The notes beneath the pieces were generated by a model that did not search any database, had not been told where the DNA came from, and worked only from the letters and a program-made list of their open reading frames with translations. From Mycobacteriales bacterium (GTDB taxonomy: Bacteria; Actinomycetota; Actinomycetes; Mycobacteriales; SCTD01), in contig JAUYQP010000052.1 in NCBI GenBank assembly GCA_030697205.1, forward strand, positions 91,867 to 149,337: 57,471 nt of DNA, written 5' to 3'. The translations under genes were made by a program, and so were the position numbers. Positions 11,873-54,120 of this stretch are shown here, piece by piece. Each line of letters begins with the position of its first letter. Position 1 is the stretch's first letter.

Positions 11873-12091
11873 CCCACACCGGACCTCCCGGACAGAGTGC
11901 CCTCACCTCGGGTCCCCGCGCACGCTTGCGCCGAACGGGTGAAGGGGTTCGGCTGAAGTCGTGTCGCTCGGAGGCTCATACTCCGGACGACTCCTGCCGA
12001 AGCAGTCACACGGTGACCTGCGCAAGCCGGCGGTCGCCCTGTGCGGAGGGACGCCTGCGCGCAGTCACTCGGGGGCGAGGAAGCACGACAG
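11873..12091 (+). other. Leader region of the giant Ig-like protein gene, with strong hairpins
   Basis: A non-coding gap between tRNA-Ala and the most likely start of the giant gene. It holds a compound hairpin at 11957-11992 (AGTCGT pairs with ACGACT outside; CGGAG with CTCCG inside, loop GCTCATA) and a second at 12002-12021 (GCA-GTCAC, loop ACG, GTGAC-C-TGC). More GC-rich pairing is possible between 12022 and 12060. A GCGAGGAAG stretch at 12076-12084 may be the ribosome-binding site. I could not match it to the GEMM c-di-GMP riboswitch or another known RNA family; part may end tRNA transcription. Confidence 0.4.
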
Positions 12092-21000: not shown

Positions 21001-21529
21001 CTTCCGCTACGTCCTGGGCAGCTACGAGCTCGTCGCGGCCCAGTCTCGGCTCGACACCCCGGTCGTGGTCAACCCTCGTCCCGTCCCGCCGGTGAGCGGC
21101 TCGGGTAGTGGCGGTCCCGGCAGCGGATCCGGCGGTGGCACGCCCACCCCTCCGGCCCCGACGGGCGCTCCGTTGGGTGGCCCTAGGGGTCCGCTCACCC
21201 CCGACGGTGACGCCGAGATCCCGCGTCGGGTTCCGCCGGTCGGTGGCTCGGTCGGCAACCCCGGGGCGCCCGACCCCCAAGCCGCACCGCGCGTGCTCGG
21301 ACGCCCCTTCGGTGACAACCTTCAGGTCCCGCAGGCGATTGCCGATGCCGTCACTGGCACCTTCAAGAAGCCGCAACTGCCCCTCGCACTGCTCGTCATC
21401 GTGGTTCTCTTCCTCTTGGTGCAGAACCGCATCGACCGCCGTGACCCCAAGCTCGCCGGCGCGCCTCTCGGCGCGGACGACGACCTGACCTTCGGACCCG
21501 CGTTCCGACCAGGAGGTGCACCCGCATGA
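12092..21529 (+). CDS. Giant exported protein of about 32 Ig-like repeats with a C-terminal membrane anchor
   Basis: About 3,145 residues from ATG 12092; an in-frame GTG at 12041 would add 17 residues. A basic N-terminus and hydrophobic segment ending PMPAAYA give an export signal. Then come roughly 32 tandem modules of about 91 residues, each ending in a linker like YVLDTTAPAAPVVTGPTGPS, followed by WSW/WTF, a cysteine in ECRL/TCRL, a second about 15 residues later (CTSP), a turn DGSYVLEVR and a DAAGN strand. The cysteines suggest one disulfide per module. After the last module come a Gly/Ser/Pro linker, one membrane helix (LALLVIVVLFLLV) and a roughly 35-residue cytoplasmic tail. No LPXTG/LAXTG motif is seen. 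Such bacterial Ig arrays are usually adhesins or surface stalks; the role here is unknown. The stop overlaps the cyclase start by 4 nt. Confidence 0.88.
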   Translation: MLQLVRGRRGGPRAVVLLLRLLTVCGVLLLGLPMPAAYAVAEAPVITGPFADAGAGSALTSPGNDTDVLWRVVDTDGLDATSCWFGQGTAPDPATWAVCDPGQASPADPAVVTTSGLTDGTWTLHAVENDGSAFGPVATASYTVDATAPVVTVTAPTSPSAEESVDWTVTLDEAGSITCTLTRTAPTPGPAEPVTCSPGTVTTSLAGKVEGSYELSVVGQDTVGNTGVAASATYQLDRVPGAATVTATPTVGTSDTAVFTVSPPAAGADGPATLTCALRLGATTVATPDCTTSPVSVGGLTTDGDYVLTVTATDGSGSSTDSSATYARDNAAPTVTFTAGPSGSGQAGSLDWSWTVVDDHPVAAGSCALHLDGVLVSTTACTSPHTETVTGQGTYSLRVTASDAAGNDSAETTSPATYLRDTVVPVVTTTVDRTSPTNLADVTFGASVDDPAATLECRLERTAPTTALVYDWTTCPTAATTLTDDGSYLFSARATDDGQTGTASRTLVLDRVAPGAPTITRAWSTPTNDAALTWGLSAPATGDTRTCRFTQDAGTPTAYAPCSTSVSFPGGATSGLWVLEVRDVDEAGNERVTAAPTVELDLVAPAQPVFTSQPSSASSEPSVSWGFGFPTGTPADAGTSFECRLTGPAPADGFDWTACATPFPQVLPTDGSYVLELRARDDAGNASALPVTTSATYVLDRVAPPTPVVVGPSGTGSTTAVQWSFSPAAADSTTDDVTRAVCTRYYEGAPVETVDPCSSPLARTLTDDGLHRVDVVLYDAAGNAGTTAASSGYLLDTAAPVAPSVSALTGPAPSSTPTIQWTWSTAESLLAPARAECRLLRDGVLLGPDFTAPCALPRTDSGLTDGSYVLEVRVVDAAGNVGATGRNAVGYVIDTGAPAVPTFPGAPTGASTSTAISWTISAESGAVLSCRLVRNDDRSGAFSTCTSPYAASGLTDGSYVLEAFATDAAGNAGGVGTSPARVVDTTGPVLAAVAGPSGNGNTKRAVWSWTSPEPTATAECQLRQGTDATAVVVSAFVSCTSPYVYTLPSGVGTYFLEVRLTDALGNVGPVTASGLYSLKTTLPGAPTVTSPASPSNDTTPVWTFSTEAATTAECRLDRDGVLGGWIPCGTPYSRDLADPLAGGGDATYVLSVRLTDNHGNTGPATASASYVLDTAAPAAPVLVQSPTGPSQDNTPTWSWTGEAGATGRCSLNGGAVVDCASPFTPTLTTDGTWVLDVALRDAAGNTSAATTAPGYVLDRVAPAAPVAVAVETSPIRVRSASWTLPALASGDSRSCVVTLDGATFATYPSCGTTLGPVALGGDGSYRVEAIDTDQALNASATGTSAALVLDTVAPGVPTLTAAPSGSAPQTAVSWSFTVPADATPQCRLERDGGVVEDWAACTSPLARTLTTDGSHVLVLRSVDAAGNLSAEVRSPSYLLDRIAPAAPVVAGPSGDASTTSVQWTWTAETGASVTCVLRRDGAVVETLAPCASPIDRVLAVDGTWRLDVVAADAAGNVGPSASSPDYRLDTALPVAPTVTGATGPTSVTTATWVVTAEAGRLECRLRRDGVVVEDWSGPCATPVVRTLAGDGGYELDARVVDAAGNVGLVGTSPVLVHDTLAPTVPVVTGLAGPQPTATTTWDIAADAGTTQECRLLLGGVAQEAFAPCGLSVTRTLASDGDWQLEVVSYDGARNPSTAGLSPVYSLDTVAPDAPTVTGPTGTAPTLAVSYGFTVPADHTASCVLRRDGVDVVTLGSCASPLPRTLGADGSYVLAVRLTDAAGNTGPEGTSPVYALDTAAPGTPVVTGPTGPSQSRAPVWVITGEAVTATCRVLRGAVVVSDAPCLGSLTGDLTAEPDGSYVLEVVTTDLAGNTSATGSSAAYVLDTTAPVAPVVTGPTGPSPDAAPVFAWTGETGTTATCSYALSGQPSVLAPVICTSPTTAALSADGAWALQVQLTDAAGNTSLVGSSGAYVLDTTAPLAPVVTPPAPTGRDRLPTWGVTAEPGADLECRVTGPSLLRDWAACAAPVDVDLTGQPEGSYSLAVRATDAAGLTGAVGSGTYLLDTVAPAAPVVTGPATGRSTTPSFAFTGEAGTVATCRLFSPASTTPLEVVQGCTSPVPVGLSGLPDGPYSLNVRLTDAAGNTGFGGLATYVLDTTAPAAPVFLSRPGSPSPDRDPTWAFSVEGGSTPVCRLVFPTGAVRDITGCASPLPVDLTGLPDGTYTLQVRAVDAVGNTSAAAVDAHVLDSTAIAPPVVTAPASPSADAKPTYLIVAPSGSTTECRLERPGTLVTDVFAPCPSSTYGLTLFGEPSGAYRLSVRARTSAGLSAVASATYLYDVDPPAAPTVTGPPSPSTVVAPVFVVASPESGATAECQLRLNGLVERDWAACPVSQAGAQTRVTLPGDGSYEFRARVTDAAGNTGPAGAVTFVLSTQAAPAVSVVVPSSPSAETNPVWQMSTPAGTTLECRLTDQDGVDVFPLGPCASPFTVQLPADGSYGFTVHAVTAAGVVGPDNSSNYVLDTVVPPAPDGLTGPPSGKDRAPEFTFSLPPGTTAVCTTTSLATGATTVVGCDSPYALPLGGASDGVYTLSVVAVSATGVPSLPTPAMPYELVTLVAVAPIFTLEPGSPSSTPDPTWRFTYPTGGGAMAECRLESGNRVIEDFTPCADGVKTLNLGGEPDGTYTLLVRVSNIAGDGPARSSSYVFDRSAVALPIIVDVPASPSNDLRPVWLLAVPAAAPAGTVLRCALTTGAAAVPTDYADCSTTFQPTLTSQGDYVVSVALRQPDGRTGAAVRSAYVLDLTPPAAPVFVNPPLSPSKAVSVTWSWQPPESGGTSVCELLRSGVMQPGYPRPCALSEQVDLSGTGDGSYTFRVRHVDVAGNASDWTTGSYVLDRVKPRLTVTARPAATEGVLTSLSWQFRFDEAVTATCTTLRSAVPIASQPCTTSWTMDLSKQQPGAFTAVVEGSDRAGNPFRYVLGSYELVAAQSRLDTPVVVNPRPVPPVSGSGSGGPGSGSGGGTPTPPAPTGAPLGGPRGPLTPDGDAEIPRRVPPVGGSVGNPGAPDPQAAPRVLGRPFGDNLQVPQAIADAVTGTFKKPQLPLALLVIVVLFLLVQNRIDRRDPKLAGAPLGADDDLTFGPAFRPGGAPA
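12240..21030 (+). repeat. Coding tandem repeat array, about 32 units of about 275 bp
   Basis: The DNA for the Ig-like modules repeats with a period near 275 bp: the linker motif recurs at about 12511, 17731, 18001, 18270, 18540 and finally near 20750. Units are diverged at the DNA level but share codon blocks for GSYVL, DAAGN and YVLD. Units in the middle (about 15800-18600) look most alike; the last 5-8 are more divergent and lose parts of the YVLDTTAP linker. Such an array can change copy number by recombination. Confidence 0.8.
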
Positions 21530-33054: not shown

Positions 33055-34440
33055 CTACTCGCGCTTGTTGTGGGCGTGGAGCTTGAGGAGGTTGTGGGCG
33101 GCGCAGGCGAGGTGCCATTCGCTGGTGACTGCGGTGTGGCCTCGGCGGCTGAAGCGGGTCATGTTCTGTCGGGTCTTGAGCTGTCCGAAGACCGGTTCGA
33201 CGGTCCGGCCTCTTTGGCGGTAGTCCGCTCGGCCTCGGTGGTGGCGGAGGCGCCGCTGCCCTCGGGCGGTCTCGGGGCGGCGTTGCAGGTCTTGACCACC
33301 GGCGGGGTCACCGCCGTCGCGCATCTTGCGGGTGTCTTTGGCCAGCGGCGCGAGGAGCCTGATCTTGTGCTCGTGGGCAAGCGCGAAGGCTTCCTCGGTG
33401 ACGTAGCCGGAGTCGGCGACGACCGTGTTGAGCTTGGCGCGGACACCGGCCGCGGTGAGCTGCTCGCGGGTGACGTCCAGGACGGGGTGGAGCAGGTTGC
33501 GGTCGACTTCCTTTTGCATCACCGTCGCCCCGACGATCACCTGATCGGCTGTGACGACGGCCTGCGCGTTGTAGCCGACGAGCAGCGTGTGCTTGGTCTT
33601 GACCGTGCGTGCCTGCGGGTCGGTGCTGTTGGCGCGAGGCGCCTTGCCCGCTGACGTCAGGACCTGCGGCGGGATCGGTCCGGGTCGGGCGCCCGGTCGT
33701 GGCTTGCCCGAGTCCTTGCGGGCCTGCCACGCGTCGATCTTGGCCTGCTGAGCGTCGACGACGCCTTGGCGCTCAGTGGCGAGCCGGTCGCGGGCTTCGG
33801 TCAGCCGCGCGATGCGCCCCGCGCGTGACTGCAACTGCGGCGGGAGCTCATCGCCACGGTCCCGCCCGTGCTCGGCGTCCTCAGCAGCGTCGACCGCGCC
33901 AGCCTCAGCAAGCATCGCCTCAGACACCGCGGCGAGCTCCGCGGCAAGCTCAGTCGTCAGCTGCTCCTCGGTCCGGTTCGCTGACCATGACGCGTTCGCC
34001 GCGACCTTCGTCCCATCGATCGCGAGCAGCGCGAGGCGCAGCATCCCGGCCTCAGCGCACAACCTCAGGACCTCGGTGAAGACCGTCGCGAGCGCCGCCT
34101 CGTGCCGCTCACGGAACCGCGCGATCGTGGCGTGGTCGGGCCGATGCCCACCACCGATCACCCGGAACGCCACATCGCGCTGGCAACGCCGCTCGATCTC
34201 GCGGGACGAACGCACGCCGTGGCAGTAGGCGAACAGCAGCAGCGCCACCATCAACGCCGGGTCATAAGCCGGGCGGCCCTGACCGTCCGAACGGTAAGCG
34301 GCGGTGAACGCGCTCAGGTCGCACTGCTCGACTGCGTCCAACACCAGCCAGACAAGATCATCAGCTGGGAGCCAGTCACGCATGTCAGGAGGCAACAAGA
34401 ACGGCTGATCCCGCTCCGGCCGCAAGAAGTTCTGCCCCAT
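33055..34440 (-). CDS. IS1182 family transposase
   Basis: 461 residues from ATG 34440 (start MGQNFLRPERDQPFLLPPDM, the family's usual N-terminus). N-terminal DUF772-like domain with DPALMVALLLFAYCHGVRSSREIER, then the first catalytic Asp in ALLAIDGTKVAANAS, a coiled middle part, a DDE core with LLVGYNAQAVVTADQVIVG, the second Asp in NTVVADSGYVTEEAF, and C-terminal GRTVEPVFGQLKTRQNMTRFSRRG containing the catalytic Glu. The frame is intact without stops, so the element could still move. It is divergent in GC and codon use only slightly from its surroundings. Confidence 0.93.
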   Translation of the reverse strand: MGQNFLRPERDQPFLLPPDMRDWLPADDLVWLVLDAVEQCDLSAFTAAYRSDGQGRPAYDPALMVALLLFAYCHGVRSSREIERRCQRDVAFRVIGGGHRPDHATIARFRERHEAALATVFTEVLRLCAEAGMLRLALLAIDGTKVAANASWSANRTEEQLTTELAAELAAVSEAMLAEAGAVDAAEDAEHGRDRGDELPPQLQSRAGRIARLTEARDRLATERQGVVDAQQAKIDAWQARKDSGKPRPGARPGPIPPQVLTSAGKAPRANSTDPQARTVKTKHTLLVGYNAQAVVTADQVIVGATVMQKEVDRNLLHPVLDVTREQLTAAGVRAKLNTVVADSGYVTEEAFALAHEHKIRLLAPLAKDTRKMRDGGDPAGGQDLQRRPETARGQRRLRHHRGRADYRQRGRTVEPVFGQLKTRQNMTRFSRRGHTAVTSEWHLACAAHNLLKLHAHNKRE

Positions 34441-34488
34441 AAGGGATTCTCCCGCGACCCAGCCGCCGCGCGCCGGCACGACACCCCG

Positions 34489-40988: not shown

Positions 40989-41674
40989 CAGCCGCCTGCC
41001 CGGAAGACGAGGACGGTCGCCCCTACGCCGATCGCGTCGCCGTCGGCGAGCGTCGCCCTCAGCGCCTTCGCACCGTTGACGCTGGTGCCGTTGGTGCTCT
41101 GCAGGTCGAGCAGCTCCGCGCTGCCGTCGGGATGCAGCGTGATCTCGGCGTGCCGACGGCTGACCCCGGTGTCGGAGACCTTGAGGTCGGCCTCCGCGCC
41201 GCGGCCGATGACGGTGACCGGGCCGAGCGGGTGCCGCTCGCCCTTCACCTCGAGCGCGGGCGAGCCCTGCACCGGCACGGCAGCGGGCGCGGCGGGCTGC
41301 TGCTCGGCGTGGACCCGGCTGCGGACCCGGAACACCCCGGTGTCGAGGTCGTCGATGCGCACGAGGTGGACCCGCACGGTCCCGACGAAGGACCAGCCCT
41401 GCTCGTCGGCGTGCTCGCGCACCATGTCCGCCAGCTCGGCGGTGAGCGCCTCGTCGTACTCCGCCAGGCGCTCGTGGTCGTGGGTCGAGAGCTCCACGTC
41501 GTAGTCGTTGGGGACGAGGACGCGGCCGGCGCCGACGATGGTCTTGTGGTCCGCGGCTTCGCGCTGCAGGCGGGCGGCCACCTCGACCGGCTGGACGACC
41601 CCTCCGAAGGTGCGCGCGAAGGCACCCTCGACGAGGCCTTCGAGCCGTCGCTCGAAGCGCTGCAGCACTCCCAC
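40988..41674 (-). CDS. fhaA: FHA-domain protein FhaA with N-terminal DUF3662
   Basis: 228 residues from GTG 41674. DUF3662 domain at residues 1-120 (GVLQRFERRLEGLVEGAFARTF, GRVLVPNDYDVELST), a linker and a C-terminal FHA domain (VIGRGAEADLKVSDTGVSRRHAEI, LLDLQSTNGTSVNG). Mycobacterial FhaA is a PknB substrate that binds the MviN pseudokinase and restrains wall synthesis; its linker is much longer there (527 residues in total). It is first gene in the division operon; its promoter lies between 41675 and the tRNA-Leu. Confidence 0.95.
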   Translation of the reverse strand: MGVLQRFERRLEGLVEGAFARTFGGVVQPVEVAARLQREAADHKTIVGAGRVLVPNDYDVELSTHDHERLAEYDEALTAELADMVREHADEQGWSFVGTVRVHLVRIDDLDTGVFRVRSRVHAEQQPAAPAAVPVQGSPALEVKGERHPLGPVTVIGRGAEADLKVSDTGVSRRHAEITLHPDGSAELLDLQSTNGTSVNGAKALRATLADGDAIGVGATVLVFRAGG

Positions 41675-41789
41675 GTCGACTCCCTTCCCATCCGGGGCGT
41701 GATCGTATCCACGCGGAGGTGGTGATCCCGTTCGCCTGTCGACCGGACCGGGTCCGCGCCCGCTCGGTGCTAGCCTCTCCTCCTGCTAC

Positions 41790-41872
41790 GCGCGAGTGGC
41801 GGAATGGCAGACGCGCACGGTTCAGGTCCGTGTACTCGAAAGGGTGTGGGGGTTCAACTCCCCCCTCGCGCA
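41790..41872 (+). tRNA. tRNA-Leu (anticodon CAG)
   Basis: An 83-nt class II tRNA: acceptor GCGCGAG pairs with CTCGCGC, D-arm GGCGGAATGGCAGACGC, anticodon loop TTCAGGT (CAG) in a CACGG/CCGTG stem, variable arm around TGTACTCGAAAGGGTGTG, T-arm GGGGG-TTCAACT-CCCCC, discriminator A. CCA is not encoded. TAGCCT at 41771-41776 is a plausible -10 element. Confidence 0.97.
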
Positions 41873-42016
41873 CAACGCAAGGCATGCTCGCCAGCTACCC
41901 GGACGCGGTCGTCCAGGTGAGCTGCGCGGGCTACTGCTGAAGTAGGGGAGCAGGCGGATCTACCCGCAGACCCGGGCTCGACGGTAGGGCGGCGCGGCTG
42001 CTGGTCGTGGTCGCGC

Positions 42017-42676
42017 TCAGCCGTGCTCCGACACGAAGCGCTCCTGACACGCCGAGGAGCAGAACAGCCACTCCCTCCCGCCGACCAGGGTGGACAGCGC
42101 TCCTGGTCTCACCGACATGTGGCAGACCGGGTCGATCAGCCCGTCCGGCGTGCCGAGCGGCAGCGACCACACGGCGATCGGCTCCGACAGGTGGCGCAGC
42201 GTCCGGGGCCCGAGCGGACGCGCATCAGTGCTGGCCGGAGCCGCGGCTGACCTGACCGCACCGCTGAGCAGCAGCTCGCCCGGCGCGGCGAGCCCGCACA
42301 GGCGGGCCGCGACGTTGACCGTGTGTCCGAGGAAGTCCTCGCCGTGCACACCATCGACCCGCAGGGCTGGACCGGTGTGGACACCCGCGCGGACCCGCAG
42401 GCACAGGTCGGCGGCACCCTGCTCCGACACTCCCGCGCGTAGCGCCTCGAGCATGTGTGCCGCGGAGCGGGCGACGAGGAGCGCGCCGTCCCCCAGGTGC
42501 TTCACGCAGACCACGTCCGCGAACTCCTCGCACGCCCGGGCCAGGGCGCCGACGAACGCGTCGTGGACGTCGGCGGCGTAGTCGTCGCCGTGAGCCTCGG
42601 TCAGCGCGGTGAACCCCGCGAGATCCACGAACGCCACACAACGGTCTACTCGCTCGCGGCCCCAGCGGACGTCCAT
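42017..42676 (-). CDS. Class III adenylate/guanylate cyclase fused to a YHS metal-binding domain
   Basis: 219 residues. Cyclase domain at about residues 10-172 with a complete set of catalytic residues: metal Asp18 (AFVDLAGFTALTE) and Asp63, base-binding Lys59 (VKHLGDGALLV) and Asp114, transition-state Asn121 and Arg125 (DFLGHTVNVAARL). A C-terminal YHS domain follows at about 180-217: DPVCHMSVRPG with Cys185 and LFCSSACQERF with Cys206/Cys210. YHS domains bind copper or other soft metals in P-type ATPases and similar proteins. No membrane helix. The product is probably cAMP, but cGMP is not excluded. It is next to a copper-type gene cluster, suggesting metal-sensitive cyclase activity (inference). 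Confidence 0.88.
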   Translation of the reverse strand: MDVRWGRERVDRCVAFVDLAGFTALTEAHGDDYAADVHDAFVGALARACEEFADVVCVKHLGDGALLVARSAAHMLEALRAGVSEQGAADLCLRVRAGVHTGPALRVDGVHGEDFLGHTVNVAARLCGLAAPGELLLSGAVRSAAAPASTDARPLGPRTLRHLSEPIAVWSLPLGTPDGLIDPVCHMSVRPGALSTLVGGREWLFCSSACQERFVSEHG

Positions 42677-42792
42677 GAAGCCAGTCTGCCGCCAGCGCGC
42701 CCGGGGTCGTCGTCGCGGCGCGTGCCGTGCGACAGGACTTTGGAGCCCGGCGGCGAAGTAGGGGGTGACCCCAGCGCCACCAGGAGACCGCC

Positions 42793-43218
42793 ATGCGCCG
42801 CACCGTGCTCACCGCCCTCGCCCTCGCTGTCGCGGCCGGAGCCCTCGCGCCCGCGCACGCCGCGCCGCCGAAGCCGTTCAGCAAGAAGGTCACCTTCGTC
42901 GACCAGACGCCCGACCCCTCGGCGTACTTCCTGGGCCCGGAGCACTGCCTCGGGCAGCTGCCGAGGGAGAAGCCGGTGTCGGTGGCGATCCCGGCGGCGG
43001 GCACGGTCGACATCGCGATCTCGGGCTTCACCGGCGAGTGGAGCCTGCTCGTCATGAACCCCGCCGGCGACGTCATCGGCGTGGCCGACGCCGACGCGCC
43101 GGCGACGGAGAAGCTCACGATGAAGCTGCGCAAGGCCGGCCGGATCGACATCCTGCCGTGCAACCTGTTCGGGACCTTCGAGGCGTCGCTGACCTACAGC
43201 TGGGCGCCGAAGAAGTAG
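42793..43218 (+). CDS. Small secreted protein of unknown function
   Basis: 141 residues from ATG 42793 with AGGAG at 42782-42786. A clear signal peptide (RRTVLTALALAVAAGALAPAHA) is followed by a roughly 118-residue beta-rich mature domain with two Cys (EHCLGQL and ILPCNLFG), perhaps one disulfide, and motifs VAIPAAGTVDIAISGFTGEW and LLVMNPAGDVIG. It resembles pre-peptidase C-terminal-like or other small extracellular beta-sandwich domains, but I do not recognise a family. It stands alone, upstream of the CsoR-like operator. Confidence 0.75.
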   Translation: MRRTVLTALALAVAAGALAPAHAAPPKPFSKKVTFVDQTPDPSAYFLGPEHCLGQLPREKPVSVAIPAAGTVDIAISGFTGEWSLLVMNPAGDVIGVADADAPATEKLTMKLRKAGRIDILPCNLFGTFEASLTYSWAPKK

Positions 43219-43232
43219 CGGCTGGGCAGAAG

Positions 43233-43247
43233 TACCCCCTGGGGGTA
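43233..43247. promoter_or_regulatory. CsoR-type copper operator
   Basis: TACCCCCTGGGGGTA is a perfect inverted repeat around one central base. It matches operators of CsoR-family Cu(I) repressors, which bind TACCC-type half-sites with G/C tracts in Streptomyces and mycobacteria. The next bases TATGCT (43246-43251) resemble a -10 element, so binding would block the promoter. The DUF4396 gene starts 31 bp downstream. No csoR gene is in the window. Confidence 0.65.
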
Positions 43248-43277
43248 TGCTTCGGGTCCCGGACCCTGGAGGGCTCC

Positions 43278-43781
43278 ATGGACCACGGCCAGCACGCCCC
43301 CGCGCCTGACGGTGCCTCGCTCACCCGGCTCGCCGTCAGCGCGACCGTCCACTGCCTGACCGGCTGCGCCATCGGCGAGGTGCTCGGCATGGTGATCGGC
43401 ACGGCCCTGGGCTGGAGCGACCTCCAGACCATCGCGCTCGCCGTCGTGCTCGCGTTCTTCTTCGGCTACGCCCTCACCATCGGCCCGGTGTTGCGGTCCG
43501 GGCTGACCCTGGGCGCAGCGATCCCGGTCGCGCTCGCCGCCGACACCGTCTCGATCACGGTCATGGAGGTCATCGACAACGCCGTGATGCTGCTCGTCCC
43601 GGGAGCGATGGAGGCGGGCCTCGCAGACCCGCTGTTCTGGGGCGCGCTGGCCTTCGCGCTCGTCGTCGCCTTCGTCGTCACGCTGCCGGTCAACCGGTGG
43701 CTCATCGGTCGGGGCAAGGGCCACGCGGTTGTCCACGGCATGCACGAGGCGGCCGGCTCGACCGGCTCCGACCACCACTGA
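43278..43781 (+). CDS. DUF4396 membrane protein, probably copper-associated
   Basis: 167 residues from ATG 43278. About four or five membrane helices: VHCLTGCAIGEVLGMVIGTAL, TIALAVVLAFFFGYALTIGPVL, LTLGAAIPVALAADTVSITVM and FWGALAFALVVAFVVTLPVNRWLIG. DUF4396 proteins have conserved HCxxGC, seen here, and are often encoded with copper-resistance genes. Both tails are His-rich (MDHGQHAP and GSDHH), which fits metal binding. It is directly downstream of the CsoR-like operator. A transport role is likely but unproved. Confidence 0.85.
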   Translation: MDHGQHAPAPDGASLTRLAVSATVHCLTGCAIGEVLGMVIGTALGWSDLQTIALAVVLAFFFGYALTIGPVLRSGLTLGAAIPVALAADTVSITVMEVIDNAVMLLVPGAMEAGLADPLFWGALAFALVVAFVVTLPVNRWLIGRGKGHAVVHGMHEAAGSTGSDHH

Positions 43782-43829
43782 CCGGGGCCCGGCGTGCGGC
43801 GACCCCTGACGCCTCCTAACGTGGGTGCC

Positions 43830-44267
43830 ATGGACCGACCGCTGCGTGCCGACCGGCTCGGCCGCGCCGTCGCGCTGCTGGCGCTGGTCGTCGGGCTGCT
43901 CGCCATGCACGGGGTCGCCGGCGCCCACCACGCCGCCGCTGAGGCTCCGTCGCACACCAGCACCGTGCACGCGGCAGTCCCGACCGAGCACGGCGCGGCC
44001 CACGTCGACCCCGTCCCGGCCGGAGCGCCGGTGGCCTTCCCGACCCCGAGTTCCCCCGACTGCGGCGACGACTGCGAGCCCGGCGTGGCGACGCTCTGCG
44101 TCGCGGTGCTGGCGGTCACCGCGATCGCGGTCGCGGCCGGGCTCGTCGCCCGGTCCCGCACCGGCACCTCGCTGGCGTCGGAGCGACCGCGGGCGCGTGC
44201 TCCCGTCGTACTCCGGCTGCCCCCTCGACTCGACCCCGTGGCGGAGCTCTGCGTCAGTCGGACGTGA
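43830..44267 (+). CDS. DUF6153-like small membrane/exported protein
   Basis: 145 residues from ATG 43830; an in-frame upstream ATG-less extension was not chosen. An N-terminal helix (AVALLALVVGLLAMHGVAG) is followed by a His-rich loop AHHAAAEAPSHTSTVHAA, CGDDC, a second helix (VATLCVAVLAVTAIAVAAGLVA) and a basic cytoplasmic tail. This pattern is the DUF6153 type seen beside DUF305 genes in Streptomyces. The His and CGDDC suggest metal binding. The gene ends 79 bp before the DUF305 lipoprotein gene and is probably cotranscribed with it. Confidence 0.7.
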   Translation: MDRPLRADRLGRAVALLALVVGLLAMHGVAGAHHAAAEAPSHTSTVHAAVPTEHGAAHVDPVPAGAPVAFPTPSSPDCGDDCEPGVATLCVAVLAVTAIAVAAGLVARSRTGTSLASERPRARAPVVLRLPPRLDPVAELCVSRT

Positions 44268-44346
44268 GCCGTCGGTCCGCGACCGTCGCCCCACCCGCTC
44301 GACGCACCACCTCCCCACGACCCGAGACACCGAACGGAGCTTCACC

Positions 44347-44961
44347 TTGCGCACCTCCCTGCTCGCCACCTCCCTGCTCAGCGCCGCCCTGGTGCTCACC
44401 GCCTGCGGCAGCAACACCGACACCGCCTCGAGTGACGACCGCTCGAGCGACAGCTCGTCGTCGAGCGCGAAGGGCAACGACGCCGACGTCGCCTTCCTGC
44501 AGGGCATGACGCCGCACCACGAGCAGGCCGTCCTCATGAGCGACCTCGTGCTCGCCGCCGGCCCGCCCGCGGGCGTCGCCGACCTCGCCCGGCGCATCAA
44601 GGCCGCGCAGTCCCCCGAGATTGACCAGATGACGAGCATGCTCAAGGACCTCGGCGCCACGGCGGACAGCGGTGGTCAGGGGGGCGGCCACAGCTCGGGC
44701 GGCATGGACGGGATGGGCGCCGAGGCGCACGAGGGGATGATGAGCGACGCCGACCTCGCGACCCTGAAGGACGCCCGGGGCGTCGACGCCGCGCGGCTCT
44801 ACCTCGAGGCGATGATCGTCCACCACCAGGGCGCGATCAAGGCGTCCGATGCTCAGCTCGCCGACGGTGTCTACGGACCCGCCCGGATGCTGGCCGAGAG
44901 CATCGCGAAGGCCCAGGCCGCCGAGATCGCCGAGATGCGGCAGCTGCTCGCGTCGCTGTAG
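44347..44961 (+). CDS. DUF305 family lipoprotein
   Basis: 204 residues; TTG start at 44347 with CGGAGC at 44335-44340. Signal peptide with lipobox LVLTAC, then a Ser-rich linker and a DUF305 ferritin-like four-helix domain with the family's two HH motifs, FLQGMTPHHEQAVLMSDL and YLEAMIVHHQGAIKASD, and a Met/His/Gly-rich loop between (GGHSSGGMDGMG). DUF305 proteins are linked to copper or other metal handling and often lie near CopC/CopD and DUF4396 genes. Anchored to the outer face of the membrane. Confidence 0.9.
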   Translation: MRTSLLATSLLSAALVLTACGSNTDTASSDDRSSDSSSSSAKGNDADVAFLQGMTPHHEQAVLMSDLVLAAGPPAGVADLARRIKAAQSPEIDQMTSMLKDLGATADSGGQGGGHSSGGMDGMGAEAHEGMMSDADLATLKDARGVDAARLYLEAMIVHHQGAIKASDAQLADGVYGPARMLAESIAKAQAAEIAEMRQLLASL

Positions 44962-45008
44962 CGGCTGACCCCGGTCCCGGGGGGCATGCTGGTGTCGGAG
45001 GCGACACC

Positions 45009-45728
45009 GTGAGGACCTGGCCGAGGAGGCACCCGCTGATCGCTGGTGCCGTCGTGGTCGTGCTGCTCCTCGGGGCCGTGTGGGTGGTCAAGTTCGTCGG
45101 CCTGGTCCGCGACGTCGGCCGCCACGCCGACTACTGGGCAGAGCCGCGCGGCCAGACCGGCGGCCTGCTCTACGTCGCTCTCGGTGACAGCGCCGCCCAG
45201 GGCATCGGGGCCAGCGCTCCCGAGCGGGGCTACGTCGGGCTGCTCGCCGAGCGGCTGCGGGAGCGCACCGGTCGGCCCGTCGAGGTCGTCAACCTCTCCT
45301 CCTCGGGCGCCCGCATCGGCGACGTGCTTGACACCCAGCTCCCGGCGCTGGCCGCTCTCGGCCGGGTGCCCGACGTCCTCACCGTCGGGATCGGCGGCAA
45401 CGACGTGCGGGCCTACGACCGCGAGGACTTCGCTGCGGAGACAGCCCGCCTCACCGCGGCGCTGCCCGAGGGCGCCTACGTCGCTGACGCGCCGTACTTC
45501 ATGCACGGCCGCTGGGAGGACGACGCCGCGCAGGCCGCCGGCGTCCTCACCACCGCCGCCCGCGCCGACGGCCTGCGCCCGGTCGCGCTGCACGCCGCGC
45601 AGCGGGCGCAGGGCTGGACGGCGATGTTCACGCAGTTCGCCGCCGACTGGTTCCACCCCAACGACCGGGGTCATCGGGTCTGGGCCGACGCCTTTTGGGC
45701 GGTCATCGAGCCGGACCTCCCCGACTGA
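45009..45728 (+). CDS. SGNH/GDSL hydrolase with N-terminal membrane anchor
   Basis: 239 residues from GTG 45009. A helix (AGAVVVVLLLGAVWVVKFVGL) anchors an extracytoplasmic SGNH esterase domain: block I nucleophile in YVALGDSAAQGIG, oxyanion Gly in NLSSSGARIGD, block III GIGGNDVRAYD and block V DWFHPNDRGH. It should cleave ester bonds of lipids or acylated wall polymers; substrate unknown. The next gene follows within 30 bp. Confidence 0.92.
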   Translation: MRTWPRRHPLIAGAVVVVLLLGAVWVVKFVGLVRDVGRHADYWAEPRGQTGGLLYVALGDSAAQGIGASAPERGYVGLLAERLRERTGRPVEVVNLSSSGARIGDVLDTQLPALAALGRVPDVLTVGIGGNDVRAYDREDFAAETARLTAALPEGAYVADAPYFMHGRWEDDAAQAAGVLTTAARADGLRPVALHAAQRAQGWTAMFTQFAADWFHPNDRGHRVWADAFWAVIEPDLPD

Positions 45729-45756
45729 CGACGCCCCGGGCCACGGGTGCGCCAGG

Positions 45757-46470
45757 ATGGCGCGCGTGACGCCCCCGTTGACGACACTCGTCCTCCTGCA
45801 CGGCCTCGGCGCGACCGGCAGCGCGTGGACCCCGCTGCGCGCGATCGCTGACTGGCCCGGTGAGGTGCTCGCCCCCGACCTGCCCGGCCACGGGAGCGCC
45901 GACCGGCTCGGCGACTACTCCGTGCCGTCGGTCGCGAAGGCCCTCGCGGCGATCCTGCCCGACGGGCCGCTCGCCGTACTCGGCCACAGCTTCGGCGGGG
46001 CGGTCGGTGCCGCGCTGGCCGGTCTGCGTGACGACGTCACCGCGGTCCTCGCGGTAGGGGTCAAGGTGTCGTGGTCCGAGGACGACGTCGCGCGCTTCGC
46101 GGCGCTGGCCGCTCGCCCGCCGCGGGTCCTCCCGACCCGCGAGCAGGCCCTCGATCGCCACCTCGCGATGGCCGGCCTGGTCGGCCGACCGCCCGAGGAG
46201 CAGGCCGACGGCGTCGCCGAGGTCGACGGCGGCTGGGGCCTCGCGATGGACCCCGCGGTCCTCGCGCAGCGCTCACCCGACCTGCCCGGCCTCATCGCGG
46301 CGACGCGCGCGCGGGTCTCACTGCTGCGCGGCGAGCACGACCCGATGGTCACCCTCGCCGACCTCGAGGCCTGCGGCGCCCCGGCCGCCGACCTGCCCGG
46401 TCTCGGCCACAACGCCCACGCCGAGGACCCGACCCTGCTCTGGCAGACAGCCCGCCCGCTCCTGACCTGA
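45757..46470 (+). CDS. Alpha/beta hydrolase
   Basis: 237 residues from ATG 45757, though GTG 45766 may be the real start because AGGA at 45754-45757 sits at proper distance from it. Single alpha/beta fold: LVLLHGLGATGSAW (oxyanion), nucleophile Ser in VLGHSFGGAVG, acid Asp in RGEHDPMVTLADL and catalytic His in GLGHNAHAEDP. The substrate is not predictable. Probably cotranscribed with the SGNH hydrolase, 28 bp upstream. Confidence 0.9.
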   Translation: MARVTPPLTTLVLLHGLGATGSAWTPLRAIADWPGEVLAPDLPGHGSADRLGDYSVPSVAKALAAILPDGPLAVLGHSFGGAVGAALAGLRDDVTAVLAVGVKVSWSEDDVARFAALAARPPRVLPTREQALDRHLAMAGLVGRPPEEQADGVAEVDGGWGLAMDPAVLAQRSPDLPGLIAATRARVSLLRGEHDPMVTLADLEACGAPAADLPGLGHNAHAEDPTLLWQTARPLLT

Positions 46471-50144: not shown

Positions 50145-51821
50145 CTACCGGAAGGGGACGGTCTGCACCGTGGTGGTGCTGTCGATCTCCGAGGTGCGCA
50201 CGACGACCTCGAAGCGCCAGTCCCCACCCCCGTCGAGCAGCGCGCGCGGCTGCTCGTAGTGGCCGAGCGACTTCCTCGGCAGAGCGACCGGGACGACCTG
50301 GTCCCCCTGCACGAAGCGGCCGGTGACCTCGGCGACGTCCACGGCCTTGCCCCCGGCGTCCTGGAGGTAGACGTGCACGACGTTGGCAACGCCTGCCCGC
50401 GCCGGCTCGACGTCGACCTGCACGCGCAGGTCACCGGCGGTCGAGGTGCCGGAGTACGTCGGGGCGTAGGCCGTGCGCGCGGGTGTCGTCTGCACCAGCA
50501 CGGCGGTCACGACGACGACCACCGCGGCGATGCCTGCCTCGAGCAGCACGCTGCGGCGCAGCCGCCGCCGGTCGGCCTGCTCGACGGCGACGACGCGCTC
50601 CGGCTCGAGCAGCGTCGTGGAGGCGTGCACGACCGCGCGGGCGTAGCGCCGGCGCACGACGTTGCGGGCGCCCCAGGCCAGCGCCAGCATGGTCACGACG
50701 AGCAGGAGCTTCGCGACGAGCAGCCGGCCGTAGTCGGTGGAGAGGACGGCGTCGAGGCTGCGGACCTCGCGCCAACTCGCGAAGGACCCCGTCGTGACCA
50801 TGACCACGACGGCCCCGGTGGCGACCCGTGACCAGCGGGGGAGGACGGTGCGCAGGTCGAGCCGGTGCTGCAGCAGCGCGAGGGCGACGAGGCCGCCGAT
50901 CCAGACGGACACCGCGACGAGGTGCAGGGCATCGACGGCCGTCGCCACCGAGCGCAGGTCACCGGCGTTGGCGTGACCGGCCAGCGCGAAGGTCCCCGCG
51001 AGCGGCCCGGCGAGGAAGGCCAGCGCGAGCAGCGAGGGCGAGCGGCGCGGCGCGTGGGTGCCCCAGGCGCCCACGGAGACCAGCGCCACGGCGGCGAGCA
51101 CGAGCAGCCCGAGGCGCGCGGCGATCGCCCGCCCGCCGTCGGTCTCGAGGACCTCGCGCAGCAGGGAGCCGTCGGTGAGCGCGGACAGCCCGAGCCCGAC
51201 CGCGTAGGGGCCCTGCGCGAGCAGCCCGCCGGTCGCACCTGCGGTGAGGGCGGCCCAGGCGGTCCAGAGCACCCGGCGCACCCGGGGCTCACGAGCACCG
51301 GCCGGCCAGAGGAAGGCGAGGAAGACCGACAGCCCGGCGAGGACGAGCAGCCCGGCGAAGCCGAGCAGCCGGGCGCCGGCGAGGACGGCCCGCGGGCCGG
51401 GCGGCGCCTCGGGGCCGGTGATGCCCGCGCCGACCTCGGACTCGACGCCGACCGAGAAGGTGAAGACGCCGGTGATGGGGTGCGCGTCCTCCGACAGCAC
51501 GCGCCACTGCACGACGAAGGTGCCCTGCGCGATCGACGCCTTGAGCGGCAGCACCACCTCGCGGCCGTCCTTGCGGGTGCTGACCCGGCCGTCGTCGACG
51601 CGCGCGCCCGCGGGGTCGAAGACCTTCGACGCACCGAGCTTGGCCCCGACCCGCTCGCTGAACAGCAGCGTCACCTCGGTGGGGTTGGCGTCGACGAGCT
51701 GCTCGTTGGCGGGGGTCGTCTCGAGCAGGGCGGCGTGGGCTGCCGCCGGTGACGCGCTGCCGAGCAGCACGCCGGACAGCACGGCCAGCACGACGAGCAG
51801 TCGCCGCACGACGACGGTCAC
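50145..51821 (-). CDS. Copper resistance protein CopC-CopD fusion
   Basis: 558 residues from GTG 51821. Signal peptide, then a CopC domain (about 28-125) with mature N-terminal His in AHAALLETTPANEQLV and DAHPITGVFTFSVGVE, then about eight membrane helices of the CopD domain with LHLVAVSVWIGGLVALALL, and a C-terminal extracytoplasmic domain of about 100 residues with no known name. CopC binds Cu(II) with His/Asp at the mature N-terminus; CopD is a membrane permease. The pair takes up or relays copper. The coupled upstream gene is a YcnI-like copper protein. Confidence 0.92.
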   Translation of the reverse strand: MTVVVRRLLVVLAVLSGVLLGSASPAAAHAALLETTPANEQLVDANPTEVTLLFSERVGAKLGASKVFDPAGARVDDGRVSTRKDGREVVLPLKASIAQGTFVVQWRVLSEDAHPITGVFTFSVGVESEVGAGITGPEAPPGPRAVLAGARLLGFAGLLVLAGLSVFLAFLWPAGAREPRVRRVLWTAWAALTAGATGGLLAQGPYAVGLGLSALTDGSLLREVLETDGGRAIAARLGLLVLAAVALVSVGAWGTHAPRRSPSLLALAFLAGPLAGTFALAGHANAGDLRSVATAVDALHLVAVSVWIGGLVALALLQHRLDLRTVLPRWSRVATGAVVVMVTTGSFASWREVRSLDAVLSTDYGRLLVAKLLLVVTMLALAWGARNVVRRRYARAVVHASTTLLEPERVVAVEQADRRRLRRSVLLEAGIAAVVVVVTAVLVQTTPARTAYAPTYSGTSTAGDLRVQVDVEPARAGVANVVHVYLQDAGGKAVDVAEVTGRFVQGDQVVPVALPRKSLGHYEQPRALLDGGGDWRFEVVVRTSEIDSTTTVQTVPFR

Positions 51822-51834
51822 GCGCGCGCCCGCT

Positions 51835-52512
51835 TCACGGTCGCCGGCGCAGGACGACGGTCCCCGCACCGACGGCCCCGAGCAGGCCCAGGCCGACGAG
51901 ACCGAGGAGCAGCACCGGGGCACCGCTGTCGCCGTCCCCGGCAGGGGAGGTCCCGGTCGAGGTCGCGGCCGGGCTGCTGGTCGACGCTGCAGTCGGCGAG
52001 GTGCTCGCCGGCCCACCGGCAGCGGCGACGACGATGAGGCGCGGGGCCGGGGACGGGTCGCCGTCGTCGATCCAGCGCGCGACCGTGCCCTCGGCGTAGG
52101 TCTGGACGACGGGGAGCTTGAGCTCCGTCGCGGGCGCGGTGGCGGGCACCTCGACGGTCAGCGCGAAGGCCACGTCTGCCGCCGCGCCGGCGGTCGGGGT
52201 CTCCCACGTGACGAAGGTCGACCCCGGCCGGGTGGTGGTGTCGGGCGTGCAGGTCCAGGACGGGCTCGGGACGGCGCAGTCGCGTACGACGAGCGGGCCC
52301 GGCACGAGCGCGTAGACCTTGCGGTTGGTCGTGCCCTGCGTCTCGACCGGTGCCCGCAGGCTCAGCTCCACGACCGTCCCGGCCGTGACCCGCGCCGGGG
52401 TGACGTCGACGTGAGCCTGCGCCACGGCGGGCGCCAGCACGAGGGCTGCCGTGGTCGTGGTCAGGGTCAGCGCGAGGGTCGTCGCGACGCTGCGGGCCCG
52501 CACGGTGGTCAT
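51835..52512 (-). CDS. YcnI family (DUF1775) copper-binding membrane protein
   Basis: 225 residues from ATG 52512, preferred because MTTVRARSVATTL gives a proper signal peptide; an ATG at 52578 would add 22 residues. The mature protein begins AHVDVTPARVTAG, with the N-terminal His that binds copper in YcnI, then a beta-sandwich with VYALVPGPLVVRDC, TWETPTAG and VQTYAEGTVARWID. A Ser/Thr/Ala spacer and one helix with RRRP stop-transfer end the protein. Lies 13 bp upstream of copC-copD on the same strand, hence one operon. Confidence 0.9.
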   Translation of the reverse strand: MTTVRARSVATTLALTLTTTTAALVLAPAVAQAHVDVTPARVTAGTVVELSLRAPVETQGTTNRKVYALVPGPLVVRDCAVPSPSWTCTPDTTTRPGSTFVTWETPTAGAAADVAFALTVEVPATAPATELKLPVVQTYAEGTVARWIDDGDPSPAPRLIVVAAAGGPASTSPTAASTSSPAATSTGTSPAGDGDSGAPVLLLGLVGLGLLGAVGAGTVVLRRRP

Positions 52513-52593
52513 GGAGGGCGTTCGCGCGCGACCCCGGGCACGGATGGTGGGCCCGGCTGTGCGCACGGTCACGACCATGCGGTCAGCGGGCGC

Positions 52594-53355
52594 TCATCGG
52601 GAGCGCAGCATCGGCGGGTGCAGCGAGGTCGCGGGTCCGCGGCGGAACAGCGCGGCCGGCCGCCCGCCCTCCGGGCCGACCGGGGCGGAGCGGCCGACCG
52701 GCACGAGGAAGCCCTCGGTGCCGGTGGTCTTGCGGTGGAAGTTGCGCGGGTCCAGCGGTGTCCCCCACACGGCCTCGTAGACCCGGCGCAGGTCCGCGAC
52801 GGTGAAGACGGCGTCGCAGAAGGCGGTCGCGAGCGAGGTGTACTCGAGCTTCGCGCGGGCCCGCTCGACGCCGGCGGCGAGGACGGTCGCGTGGTCGAAC
52901 GCCATCCGCCCGCCCTGCACCTCCGCGACCGGCACCCAGTCGACGCGAGTCGCCCCGGACCCCGGGACGGGCGCCGGCAGGTCGGGCGCGAAGACCAGGT
53001 AGGCCACCGACAGGACGCGCATCCGGGGGTCGCGGGCCGGGTCGCCGAAGGCGCCGAGCTGCTCGACGTGCGCTGCATCGCGGCGTACTCCTGTCTCCTG
53101 CTCCAGGCGGCGGACCGCCGCAGCCTCGAGGTCCTCGTCGGGCTGCACGAAGCCGCCGGGCAGGGCGAGGTCACCGCGGAAGGGGTGGGTGTCGCGCTCG
53201 ACGAGCAGCACGCACAGGCGGTGCTCCCGCACCGTGAGCACGACCATGTCGACGGTCACGCCGAAGGGCGGGAAGGCCCGCGGGTCGTAGGCGGCGAGGA
53301 ACGCGGCCTCGTCGCTGACTCCGTCACCCACCCCGTCGCCCGACCTGTCGCTCAC
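52594..53355 (-). CDS. Nudix protein with NrtR-like winged-helix C-terminus
   Basis: 253 residues from GTG 53355. Nudix domain at about 30-165: VTVDMVVLTVREHRLCVLLV, GDLALPGGFVQPDEDLEAAA and RRLEQETGV. The Nudix box lacks two of the usual charged residues (RR for RE, QE for EE), as in regulators that bind but do not cleave. The C-terminal 80 residues (VFTVADLRRVYEAVWGTPLDPRNFHRKTTG) match the winged helix of NrtR, an ADP-ribose-sensing repressor of NAD genes. No NAD gene is in the window, so its target is unknown. A catalytic Nudix hydrolase is the alternative. Confidence 0.8.
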   Translation of the reverse strand: MSDRSGDGVGDGVSDEAAFLAAYDPRAFPPFGVTVDMVVLTVREHRLCVLLVERDTHPFRGDLALPGGFVQPDEDLEAAAVRRLEQETGVRRDAAHVEQLGAFGDPARDPRMRVLSVAYLVFAPDLPAPVPGSGATRVDWVPVAEVQGGRMAFDHATVLAAGVERARAKLEYTSLATAFCDAVFTVADLRRVYEAVWGTPLDPRNFHRKTTGTEGFLVPVGRSAPVGPEGGRPAALFRRGPATSLHPPMLRSR

Positions 53356-53424
53356 GCTCCGGACGCTAGCGCCGATGGGTCGTGCAGGTGGCCCCACGGA
53401 CGGAGCTGCTGGAGGAGAAGCGCC

Positions 53425-54120
53425 ATGCTTGAGCTGCTGCTCGCCGTCGTCGTGACCGCTGTCGTCGCGGTGGGGCTCACCCACCGGTCGCTCACCGGAC
53501 GGCACCGGACCGCCCTGGCCGACGCGCTGGCGCAGGCCGACGCCCGCCACTCGGCCGACCTGCAGGCCGTGTCGGCGCTCGCGCTGCACGACCCGCTCAC
53601 CGGTCTGCCCAACCGGGTGCTGCTGCTCGACCGGCTGCGCCACGCGCTGTCGTCACAGTCTCGTCGCGGCGGCCAGGTCGGCGTGCTCTTCCTCGACCTC
53701 GACGGCTTCAAGGCGGTCAACGACGGCTACGGCCACGCCGCCGGTGACGAGGTGCTGCGGGTGGTGGCCGCGCGGCTGCGTCAGGCGGTGCGCTCCGGTG
53801 ACACCGCGGCCCGGCTGGCCGGTGACGAGTTCGTCGTGGTCTGCGAGGGCGTCGACGGGCCGGCGGCGCTCGCCGTCGCGGCGTCGCGCATCGAGTCGGC
53901 GCTCGCGGCGCCCATGGACCTCGAGGGGCGCACGGTCTGCCTCGGCGTCTCCGTCGGGATCTCGCTCGCCGTCGGTGGTCAGACCGCCGAGGACGTCCTG
54001 CGGGCGGCCGACACCCGGATGTACGACGTGAAGCGCGCCCGTCAGCTCCGCCTTGCCGAGCTGGGAGTGCACAACCGGCTCGCCTCCGCCGCCGCGCCCG
54101 CCCTGCGGCTGCAGCTCTGA
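53425..54120 (+). CDS. Membrane-anchored GGDEF-domain protein (AGDEF variant)
   Basis: 231 residues from ATG 53425 with GGAGGAGAAG at 53411-53420. One N-terminal helix (ELLLAVVVTAVVAVGLTH) and a GGDEF domain from about residue 50: ALHDPLTGLPNRVLLLDRL, metal Asp in LFLDLDGFKAVNDGYGH, active-site loop ARLAGDEFVVV and an RxxD inhibitory site (RSGD) five residues before it. The loop is AGDEF instead of GGDEF; some AGDEF proteins are active, so activity is possible. It may act by regional signalling, as it lacks a sensory domain. Divergent from the Nudix gene, 69 bp away. Confidence 0.9.
   Translation: MLELLLAVVVTAVVAVGLTHRSLTGRHRTALADALAQADARHSADLQAVSALALHDPLTGLPNRVLLLDRLRHALSSQSRRGGQVGVLFLDLDGFKAVNDGYGHAAGDEVLRVVAARLRQAVRSGDTAARLAGDEFVVVCEGVDGPAALAVAASRIESALAAPMDLEGRTVCLGVSVGISLAVGGQTAEDVLRAADTRMYDVKRARQLRLAELGVHNRLASAAAPALRLQL

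What the first reader, a model, noticed from the sequence alone, without database searches (positions are those of the whole stretch)
42017..42676. Complete class III cyclase fused to a YHS metal domain beside copper genes
All six catalytic positions (D18, K59, D63, D114, N121, R125) are present, followed by a C-terminal YHS domain with CxxxC-type ligands (C206, C210) and C185. A CsoR-like operator and DUF4396/DUF6153-like/DUF305 genes follow within 2.5 kb, CopC-CopD and YcnI within 10 kb. This suggests a soluble enzyme whose cyclic nucleotide output responds to copper or another soft metal, a signalling layout I do not know to be described.
Basis: partly seen in the sequence, partly recalled or inferred. 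Interest (0 to 1): 0.63.

Follow-up and report, generated by a model that had tools for sequence, protein, structure and literature searches.

The report
Metal-sensing adenylyl cyclase (AC-YHS family)
The gene encodes a cyclic-AMP-making enzyme joined to a small metal-binding domain, a kind of protein already known to be switched on by copper in one bacterium; the useful addition is that its mycobacterial relatives tend to sit beside metal-export pumps, mostly of the cadmium/zinc/cobalt type rather than the copper type.

Summary
Copper-type genes lie nearby, and a perfect CsoR-family palindrome (43233-43247) precedes the DUF4396 gene.

The claim that the layout is undescribed is wrong. Linder 2015 (PMC4626032) purified such an enzyme from Mycobacterium phlei and showed Cu2+ activation that depends on the YHS domain. 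This is a new, divergent member of that kind; its genome carries a second copy (68% identical) in another metal island.

New here is a neighbourhood test. In 148 genomes of one mycobacterial genus, 26 of 32 AC-YHS loci have a P1B metal ATPase within 8 kb, against 4 of 40 other cyclase loci, two of which hold AC-YHS sequence themselves. The pump motif is mostly SPC (24 SPC, 1 CPC, 1 unresolved), the Zn/Cd/Co class. Enzymes with exactly the M. phlei numbering sit beside SPC pumps and CmtR-like regulators, so the natural metal may not always be copper. Linder's text names no test of Cd, Pb, Hg or Ag.

The parts
42017..42676 (-). AC-YHS: class III adenylyl cyclase with C-terminal YHS domain, 219 aa
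42242..42640 (-). cyclase homology domain, residues 13-145 (D18, K59, D63, D114, N121, R125)
   Evidence: Pfam PF00211 E 3.5e-7; coordinates computed from residue numbers
42032..42136 (-). YHS domain, residues 181-215 (D182, C185, C206, C210)
   Evidence: Pfam PF04945 E 5.3e-6, below cut-off; ligands invariant in 86 of 86 rows called YHS
42793..43218 (+). 141-aa protein, divergent from AC-YHS, with a weak TAT-signal-like start; family unknown
   Evidence: no Pfam match; TAT signal E 0.029, below cut-off
43233..43247 (.). CsoR-family operator-like palindrome TACCCCC-T-GGGGGTA, 30 bp upstream of the DUF4396 start
43278..43781 (+). DUF4396 membrane protein
   Evidence: Pfam PF14342 E 1.3e-44
43794..44267 (+). 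DUF6153-like / CopL-like His-rich protein
   Evidence: Pfam DUF6153 E 1.4e-4 and NCBIfam CopL_fam E 0.006, both below cut-off
44344..44961 (+). DUF305 protein with lipoprotein-like start (start codon uncertain)
   Evidence: Pfam PF03713 E 2.9e-41
45009..45728 (+). GDSL/SGNH hydrolase; 71% identical copy beside the second AC-YHS
50145..52016 (-). CopC-CopD fusion (start probably inside the ORF)
   Evidence: Pfam CopC and CopD above cut-off
51835..52578 (-). YcnI/DUF1775 protein
   Evidence: Pfam PF07987 E 1.4e-9

Best explanation
A cytosolic class III adenylyl cyclase that works as a metal switch. Two subunits form the catalytic sites at their interface; a soft metal ion, most likely copper in this organism, binds D182/C185/C206/C210 of the YHS domain and turns the cyclase on, so that excess metal is signalled as cAMP to CRP-type receptors. 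Shown here: intact domains, conserved catalytic and ligand residues, copper-type neighbours, a duplicated gene module. Shown elsewhere for one relative: Cu2+ activation that needs the YHS domain. Inferred: that this protein binds copper, that it makes cAMP, and the downstream target.
For: Domain match and all six catalytic residues; D plus three C conserved. The same architecture was purified from M. phlei: no activity with Mg2+ until Cu2+ is added, and the catalytic domain alone is not activated. DUF4396/DUF6153-like/DUF305/SGNH genes beside it, CopC-CopD and YcnI 7.5-10 kb away. The second copy (L023) has DUF305, DUF6153-like, SGNH and a CPC-type HMA-cupredoxin ATPase in its island. In Paraconexibacter (L043) a DUF4396 relative lies just upstream of the AC-YHS, with a CPC pump 2 kb away. 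K59 and D114 are the residues that set ATP as substrate (recalled rule). Five cNMP-binding-domain matches in the genome.
Against: No activity or metal data for this protein. No P1B ATPase was clustered in window 33501-54500. DUF305 is not enriched near mycobacterial AC-YHS (1 of 32 against 2 of 40 controls). The operator-like site matches sites near CstR-like genes, not at the copper-type CsoR locus. The AC gene is divergent and not in the row behind the site; its own 116-bp intergenic region has no match to the pattern. The pair forms a separate branch with no close orthologue in the genomes sampled, and its dimerisation-arm region is 4 residues longer than in most AC-YHS (11 against 7).
Confidence: 0.6

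Rival explanations
1. The metal is not copper but another soft metal (Cd, Zn, Pb, Co), as the neighbours of the large mycobacterial branches suggest; Cu2+ activation in vitro would be a surrogate.
For: 26 of 32 AC-YHS loci in 148 genomes have a P1B ATPase within 8 kb: 24 SPC, 1 CPC, 1 motif not seen; 16 of 32 have a CmtR-like ArsR (CmtR model E 1.1e-15 for the query, below its cut-off). In Tsukamurella the AC-YHS gene and a gene annotated as cadmium resistance transporter overlap by 4 bp. The numbering reported for the M. phlei enzyme (233 aa, D178, C181, W201, W202, C204, C208) is matched exactly by SPC-pump-linked mycobacterial members such as L044, L059 and L076.
Against: The window's gene and its second copy have copper-type neighbours; Rhizobium johnstonii AC-YHS is divergent from a CPC-type ATPase next to cueR. 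Linder found no activation by Zn, Fe, Cr, Co or Ni. PIB-4 pumps can be broad in metal, Cu+ included.
Confidence: 0.25
2. The YHS cysteines sense redox state or reactive sulfur rather than a metal, in line with the CstR-like operator sites.
For: Four of the five TACCC..GGGTA sites of the genome lie near CsoR-family genes without the copper His ligand, one of them with a rhodanese-like gene beside it (labels recalled).
Against: The site is not in the AC promoter; the ligand set D + 3C fits a metal site; Linder reports that EDTA abolishes the Cu effect, against oxidation.
Confidence: 0.08
3. The YHS domain is a structural tail without a switching role in this branch.
For: Divergent pair; longer arm region; YHS score below Pfam cut-off.
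Against: All four ligand positions kept in both copies, which share 68% identity; metal-gene context of both.
Confidence: 0.07

Closest known systems
Mycobacterium phlei AC-YHS (MpAC, EID14989.1; Linder 2015, PMC4626032)
   Same: Single class III cyclase domain, six catalytic residues, one C-terminal YHS with D + 3C, small soluble protein
   Different: The window pair is a separate deep branch, 4 residues longer in the arm region, in a copper-type setting; relatives with MpAC's exact numbering sit beside SPC pumps. MpAC's own sequence and locus were not available to me.
Rhizobium AC-YHS (R. johnstonii 3841 pRL11)
   Same: Same fusion; beside cueR, a CPC-type ATPase and DUF305
   Different: About 32% identical; proteobacterial; directly divergent from the pump
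M. tuberculosis Rv1900c/LipJ and Rv1264 cyclases
   Same: Closest solved cyclases by sequence and in the top 11 by fold
   Different: Other domain make-up (lipase fusion; regulatory N-terminal domain: recalled); no YHS match reported

Membership tests
AC-YHS (Linder 2015) | One class III cyclase domain with all six canonical catalytic residues | tested here: met
AC-YHS (Linder 2015) | One C-terminal YHS domain with D + 3 Cys | tested here: met
   D182, C185, C206, C210; Pfam YHS 26.8 bits, below the 30.3 cut-off
AC-YHS (Linder 2015) | Class IIIc: short dimerisation arm (7 residues in MpAC) | tested here: inconclusive
   The same interval is 11 residues in the window protein and its second copy, 7 in 78 of 86 and 8 in 6 of 86 rows; I have no class boundary to hand
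AC-YHS (Linder 2015) | Cu2+ switches the enzyme on with Mg2+, via YHS | not testable with these tools
PIB-4 ATPase (neighbours of mycobacterial AC-YHS, not in this window) | SPC in M4 and HEGxT in M6 | tested here: inconclusive
   Co-directional 'b' type: SPC + HEGST, met. Divergent 'a' type: SPC but HE[L/V]AE in place of HEGxT, so only partly
Copper CsoR regulon | Operator read by a CsoR with Cys-His-Cys ligands | tested here: inconclusive
   Palindrome present; the copper-type CsoR is at C37:30206, but the exact pattern occurs near the two CstR-like genes instead (ligand rule recalled)

The most novel reading that the evidence does not exclude
AC-YHS enzymes are a cAMP branch built into metal-efflux operons, and their metal follows the pump they travel with: Cd/Zn/Co-type in most mycobacterial and Tsukamurella loci seen here (SPC pumps, CmtR-like regulators, CadD), copper-type in Rhizobium and in this actinomycete. 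The only enzyme tested with copper would then belong to a branch whose natural signal is probably cadmium-like.
Probability: 0.35. Interest if true: 0.6.

Novelty: new member of a known kind. Interest (0 to 1): 0.36.

Why it matters
It shows that a copper-sensing cyclase described in 2015 belongs to a wider family that is, in mycobacteria at least, tied to metal-export genes, and it turns the open question of its physiological metal into a direct test: assay the enzyme with the metal of its neighbouring pump. If the match holds, metal stress and cAMP signalling are coupled in accessory resistance islands.

Tried and rejected
Considered and rejected: chance ORF or false fusion (second copy, 69 of 80 relatives with the fusion, high-confidence model); pseudogene (open frame, all catalytic residues); a plus-strand gene (the plus-strand frame has stops). 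Rfam search of 41500-46000 gave nothing above threshold. The sigma-70/terminator scan gave nothing useful. Foldseek matched the cyclase fold; no separate YHS match was seen in the 50 rows shown, and no coordinates were available to measure ligand distances. Window DUF4396, SGNH, CopCD and YcnI queries found nothing in the 72 mycobacterial-genus loci, and DUF305 only 1 of 32 against 2 of 40, so the window's exact neighbours are not the family's general neighbours. I could not obtain M. phlei's sequence or locus; its branch is inferred from residue numbering alone (one further row, L138, has the same length and D178 but no start codon there and no WW pair).

Limits of the neighbourhood test: the 40 controls were picked by hand down the ranked list (20 from genomes that also hold AC-YHS, 20 from the top of the list), not at random. 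The reference proteins came from AC-YHS loci, which favours CopD, ArsR and methyltransferase hits there; 'CopD' is my label for a query that was not run against Pfam, and PGAP calls the M. gallinarum one a cytochrome c oxidase assembly protein. Several loci are near-copies, and the AC-YHS pairs in G055 and G139 share one island. Counted by genome, 20 of 25 AC-YHS genomes have a P1B ATPase beside one of their AC-YHS genes. The named set overlaps the genus set: 13 of 32 genus loci have the same C-terminal 180 residues as a named locus.

Full report
What is there. The finding's coordinates hold one intact gene on the minus strand, 42017-42676, 219 aa. Pfam recognises a class III cyclase domain (residues 13-145, E 3.5e-7) and a YHS domain (181-215, E 5.3e-6, 26.8 bits against a cut-off of 30.3). 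AlphaFold2 on an alignment of 28 sequences gave mean pLDDT 93.5, pTM 0.87; the best solved folds are class III cyclases. The genome has 4.0 Mb in 59 contigs. A genome of its family (G004) has a contig of the same length and number as one from a MAG titled Frankiaceae bacterium, both with an AC-YHS.

A second copy. The same genome carries a 68%-identical AC-YHS on contig C46. Beside it are DUF305 (56% identical to the window's), SGNH hydrolase (71%) and a DUF6153-like gene (39%), an F510_1955-family protein and a CDF-like piece below cut-off, a CPC-type HMA-cupredoxin ATPase, an ArsR gene that clusters with the CmtR-like one NCBIfam was run on, and a large ORF that I take for a relaxase (recalled). 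Both copies thus keep a four-gene set in changed order.

Already known. One paper came up in five searches for this fusion, and was one of two papers in a sixth: Linder 2015, PMC4626032. I read its outline, the first two of four parts of the text and section 15, that is abstract, introduction, methods and results, not its supplements. It reports 26 AC-YHS proteins, mainly mycobacterial and some rhizobial, all class IIIc, and shows that the M. phlei enzyme has no detectable activity with Mg2+ until Cu2+ is added, that the catalytic domain alone is not activated, that EDTA removes the effect, and that Zn, Fe, Cr, Co and Ni do nothing. Cd, Pb, Hg and Ag are not among the metals listed. What I read says nothing about gene neighbours.

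Extent and conservation. In an alignment of 86 distinct AC-YHS rows, D and three C are invariant and 83 have all six catalytic residues; the motif search that admitted rows requires the cysteines, so their invariance is partly built in. Of 148 genomes of one mycobacterial genus, 25 hold 32 such loci, 29 nearly complete over the query and 3 partial (at most 20 first-look candidates per genome were scored and the match list was cut, so a lower bound). In the window's own family 2 of 24 genomes have one, the window's included; in a class-wide draw 4 of 394 pass a strict threshold, the window's included (7 candidates scored per genome). The gene is sporadic, as accessory genes are.

Neighbourhood test. 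I compared the 32 AC-YHS loci with 40 loci of other class III cyclases from the same genus (35 genomes), 8 kb on each side where the contig allows. A P1B ATPase was found in 26 of 32 against 4 of 40 (Fisher p 1e-9). Two of the four control regions hold AC-YHS sequence themselves: in L155 the chosen cyclase runs into a YHS segment in another frame, and L153 has a cyclase fragment plus a YHS segment at its edge; without them 2 of 38 (p 4e-11). The two left, L156 and L158, have CPC pumps and DUF305 beside ordinary cyclases. CopD-like: 14 of 32 against 0 of 40. CmtR-like ArsR: 16 against 2 (the same two controls). An isoprenylcysteine-methyltransferase-like gene: 16 against 1. CsoR family: 9 against 1. 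CadD: 7 against 1. CadI, ArsC and ACR3: 5 against 0 each. Not enriched: DUF305, 1 against 2; LspA, 3 against 1. Counted by genome, 20 of 25. In the overlapping named set, 32 of 69 YHS loci and 0 of 11 others have a P1B ATPase; 37 of 69 have none, mostly outside mycobacteria, so the link is not universal.

Which pump. Of the 26, 24 show SPC, 1 CPC, 1 none seen; of the 32 named, 29 show SPC (three of them also CPC and one CPH), 2 CPC only, 1 none seen. Two layouts recur. In one, the AC gene lies directly behind an SPC + HEGST pump; in L033, L045, L126, L132, L135 and L137 a possible start codon overlaps the upstream stop by 4 bp. In the other, an SPC pump with HE[L/V]AE and a CmtR-like ArsR run divergently. 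Annotated examples: Iamia ArsR-ATPase-AC, each overlapping by 4 bp, pump motif APC; Tsukamurella AC overlapping a cadmium transporter gene by 4 bp; M. gallinarum ATPase-AC with a 2-bp gap; R. johnstonii AC divergent from a CPC ATPase with cueR; in Rhodococcus sp. WAY2 no P-type ATPase within 6 kb but a multicopper oxidase. PIB-4 pumps carry SPC and HEGxT and have a broad range; sCoaT uses Zn and Cd (PMC8880997, passages). M. tuberculosis CtpG, in a cmtR operon, gives cadmium tolerance; its motif is APC (PMC13043812, passages).

Tree. On a tree of 83 AC-YHS rows (L140, L141, L142, L028, identical rows and rows without the YHS motif left out) the two SPC layouts are clustered: 4 and 3 changes against shuffled means of 20.5 and 12.4; CPC is scattered, 5 rows, 5 changes. 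The window and its second copy form their own starred branch; the program warns of long branches next to it. Near-copies help such clustering. Several mycobacterial members match the M. phlei enzyme's numbering exactly and sit in the SPC + CmtR-like layout; that M. phlei's enzyme belongs there is inference.

The operator. TACCCCCTGGGGGTA at 43233-43247 is the only such site in the window (0.10 expected). The genome has five (control pattern: three). The other four lie within 4 kb of two CsoR-family genes whose ligand motif lacks the copper histidine, one with a rhodanese-like neighbour; the copper-type CsoR, beside an ORF with an HMA motif, has none of the exact pattern (ligand rule and labels recalled). 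The DUF4396-DUF305 row may thus answer to a CstR-like regulator, and the AC gene is not behind the site.

Mechanism. Best reading: metal binds the YHS domain and activates the cyclase dimer; cAMP reaches one or more of the five cNMP-binding proteins in the genome. Copper is favoured by the neighbours of both copies and by Linder's assay; for this protein nothing has been measured.

Verdict. A real and well-read observation, but a new member of a known kind. The pump association, and the mismatch between the tested metal and the commonest pump type, are what deserve follow-up.

Noticed in passing
L059, L075, L123, L127 and others, directly upstream of AC-YHS: A small isoprenylcysteine-methyltransferase-like membrane gene (NCBIfam below cut-off) precedes AC-YHS in many SPC-linked loci (present in 16 of 32 loci); in Tsukamurella a SAM-dependent methyltransferase takes that place. 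Its role in metal signalling is unexplained.
   Followed up: partly
L153 and L155 (mycobacterial-genus genomes): Broken AC-YHS sequence still in islands with SPC pumps: in L155 cyclase and YHS parts lie in different frames, in L153 a cyclase fragment and a separate YHS segment.
   Followed up: partly
L191 13159-16329 and L192 5861-9227 (own genome C37, C10): CsoR-family regulators without the copper histidine, with TACCC..GGGTA palindromes nearby and MMPL-like, rhodanese-like and DUF302-like neighbours (names recalled from sequence).
   Followed up: partly
L156 and L158 (mycobacterial-genus genomes): Two ordinary class III cyclases without YHS that lie near a CPC-type ATPase and DUF305.
   Followed up: no
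window 33055-34479, minus strand: ORF that reads like a transposase (recalled), third-position GC 0.84 against about 0.96 for many neighbours.
   Followed up: no
window 12041-21529, plus strand: A 3162-aa open reading frame with high second-position GC (0.63), possibly a giant repetitive surface protein.
   Followed up: no
window 51244-54120, plus-strand ORF, 3' part: A GGDEF-like sequence (recalled motif) near the CopCD/YcnI genes.
   Followed up: no
window 41790-41873: tRNA-Leu(CAG) right behind the AC-YHS stop; ARAGORN finds it while the Rfam scan at gathering threshold lists nothing there. It separates the fhaA cluster from the metal genes and could be an island edge.
   Followed up: no
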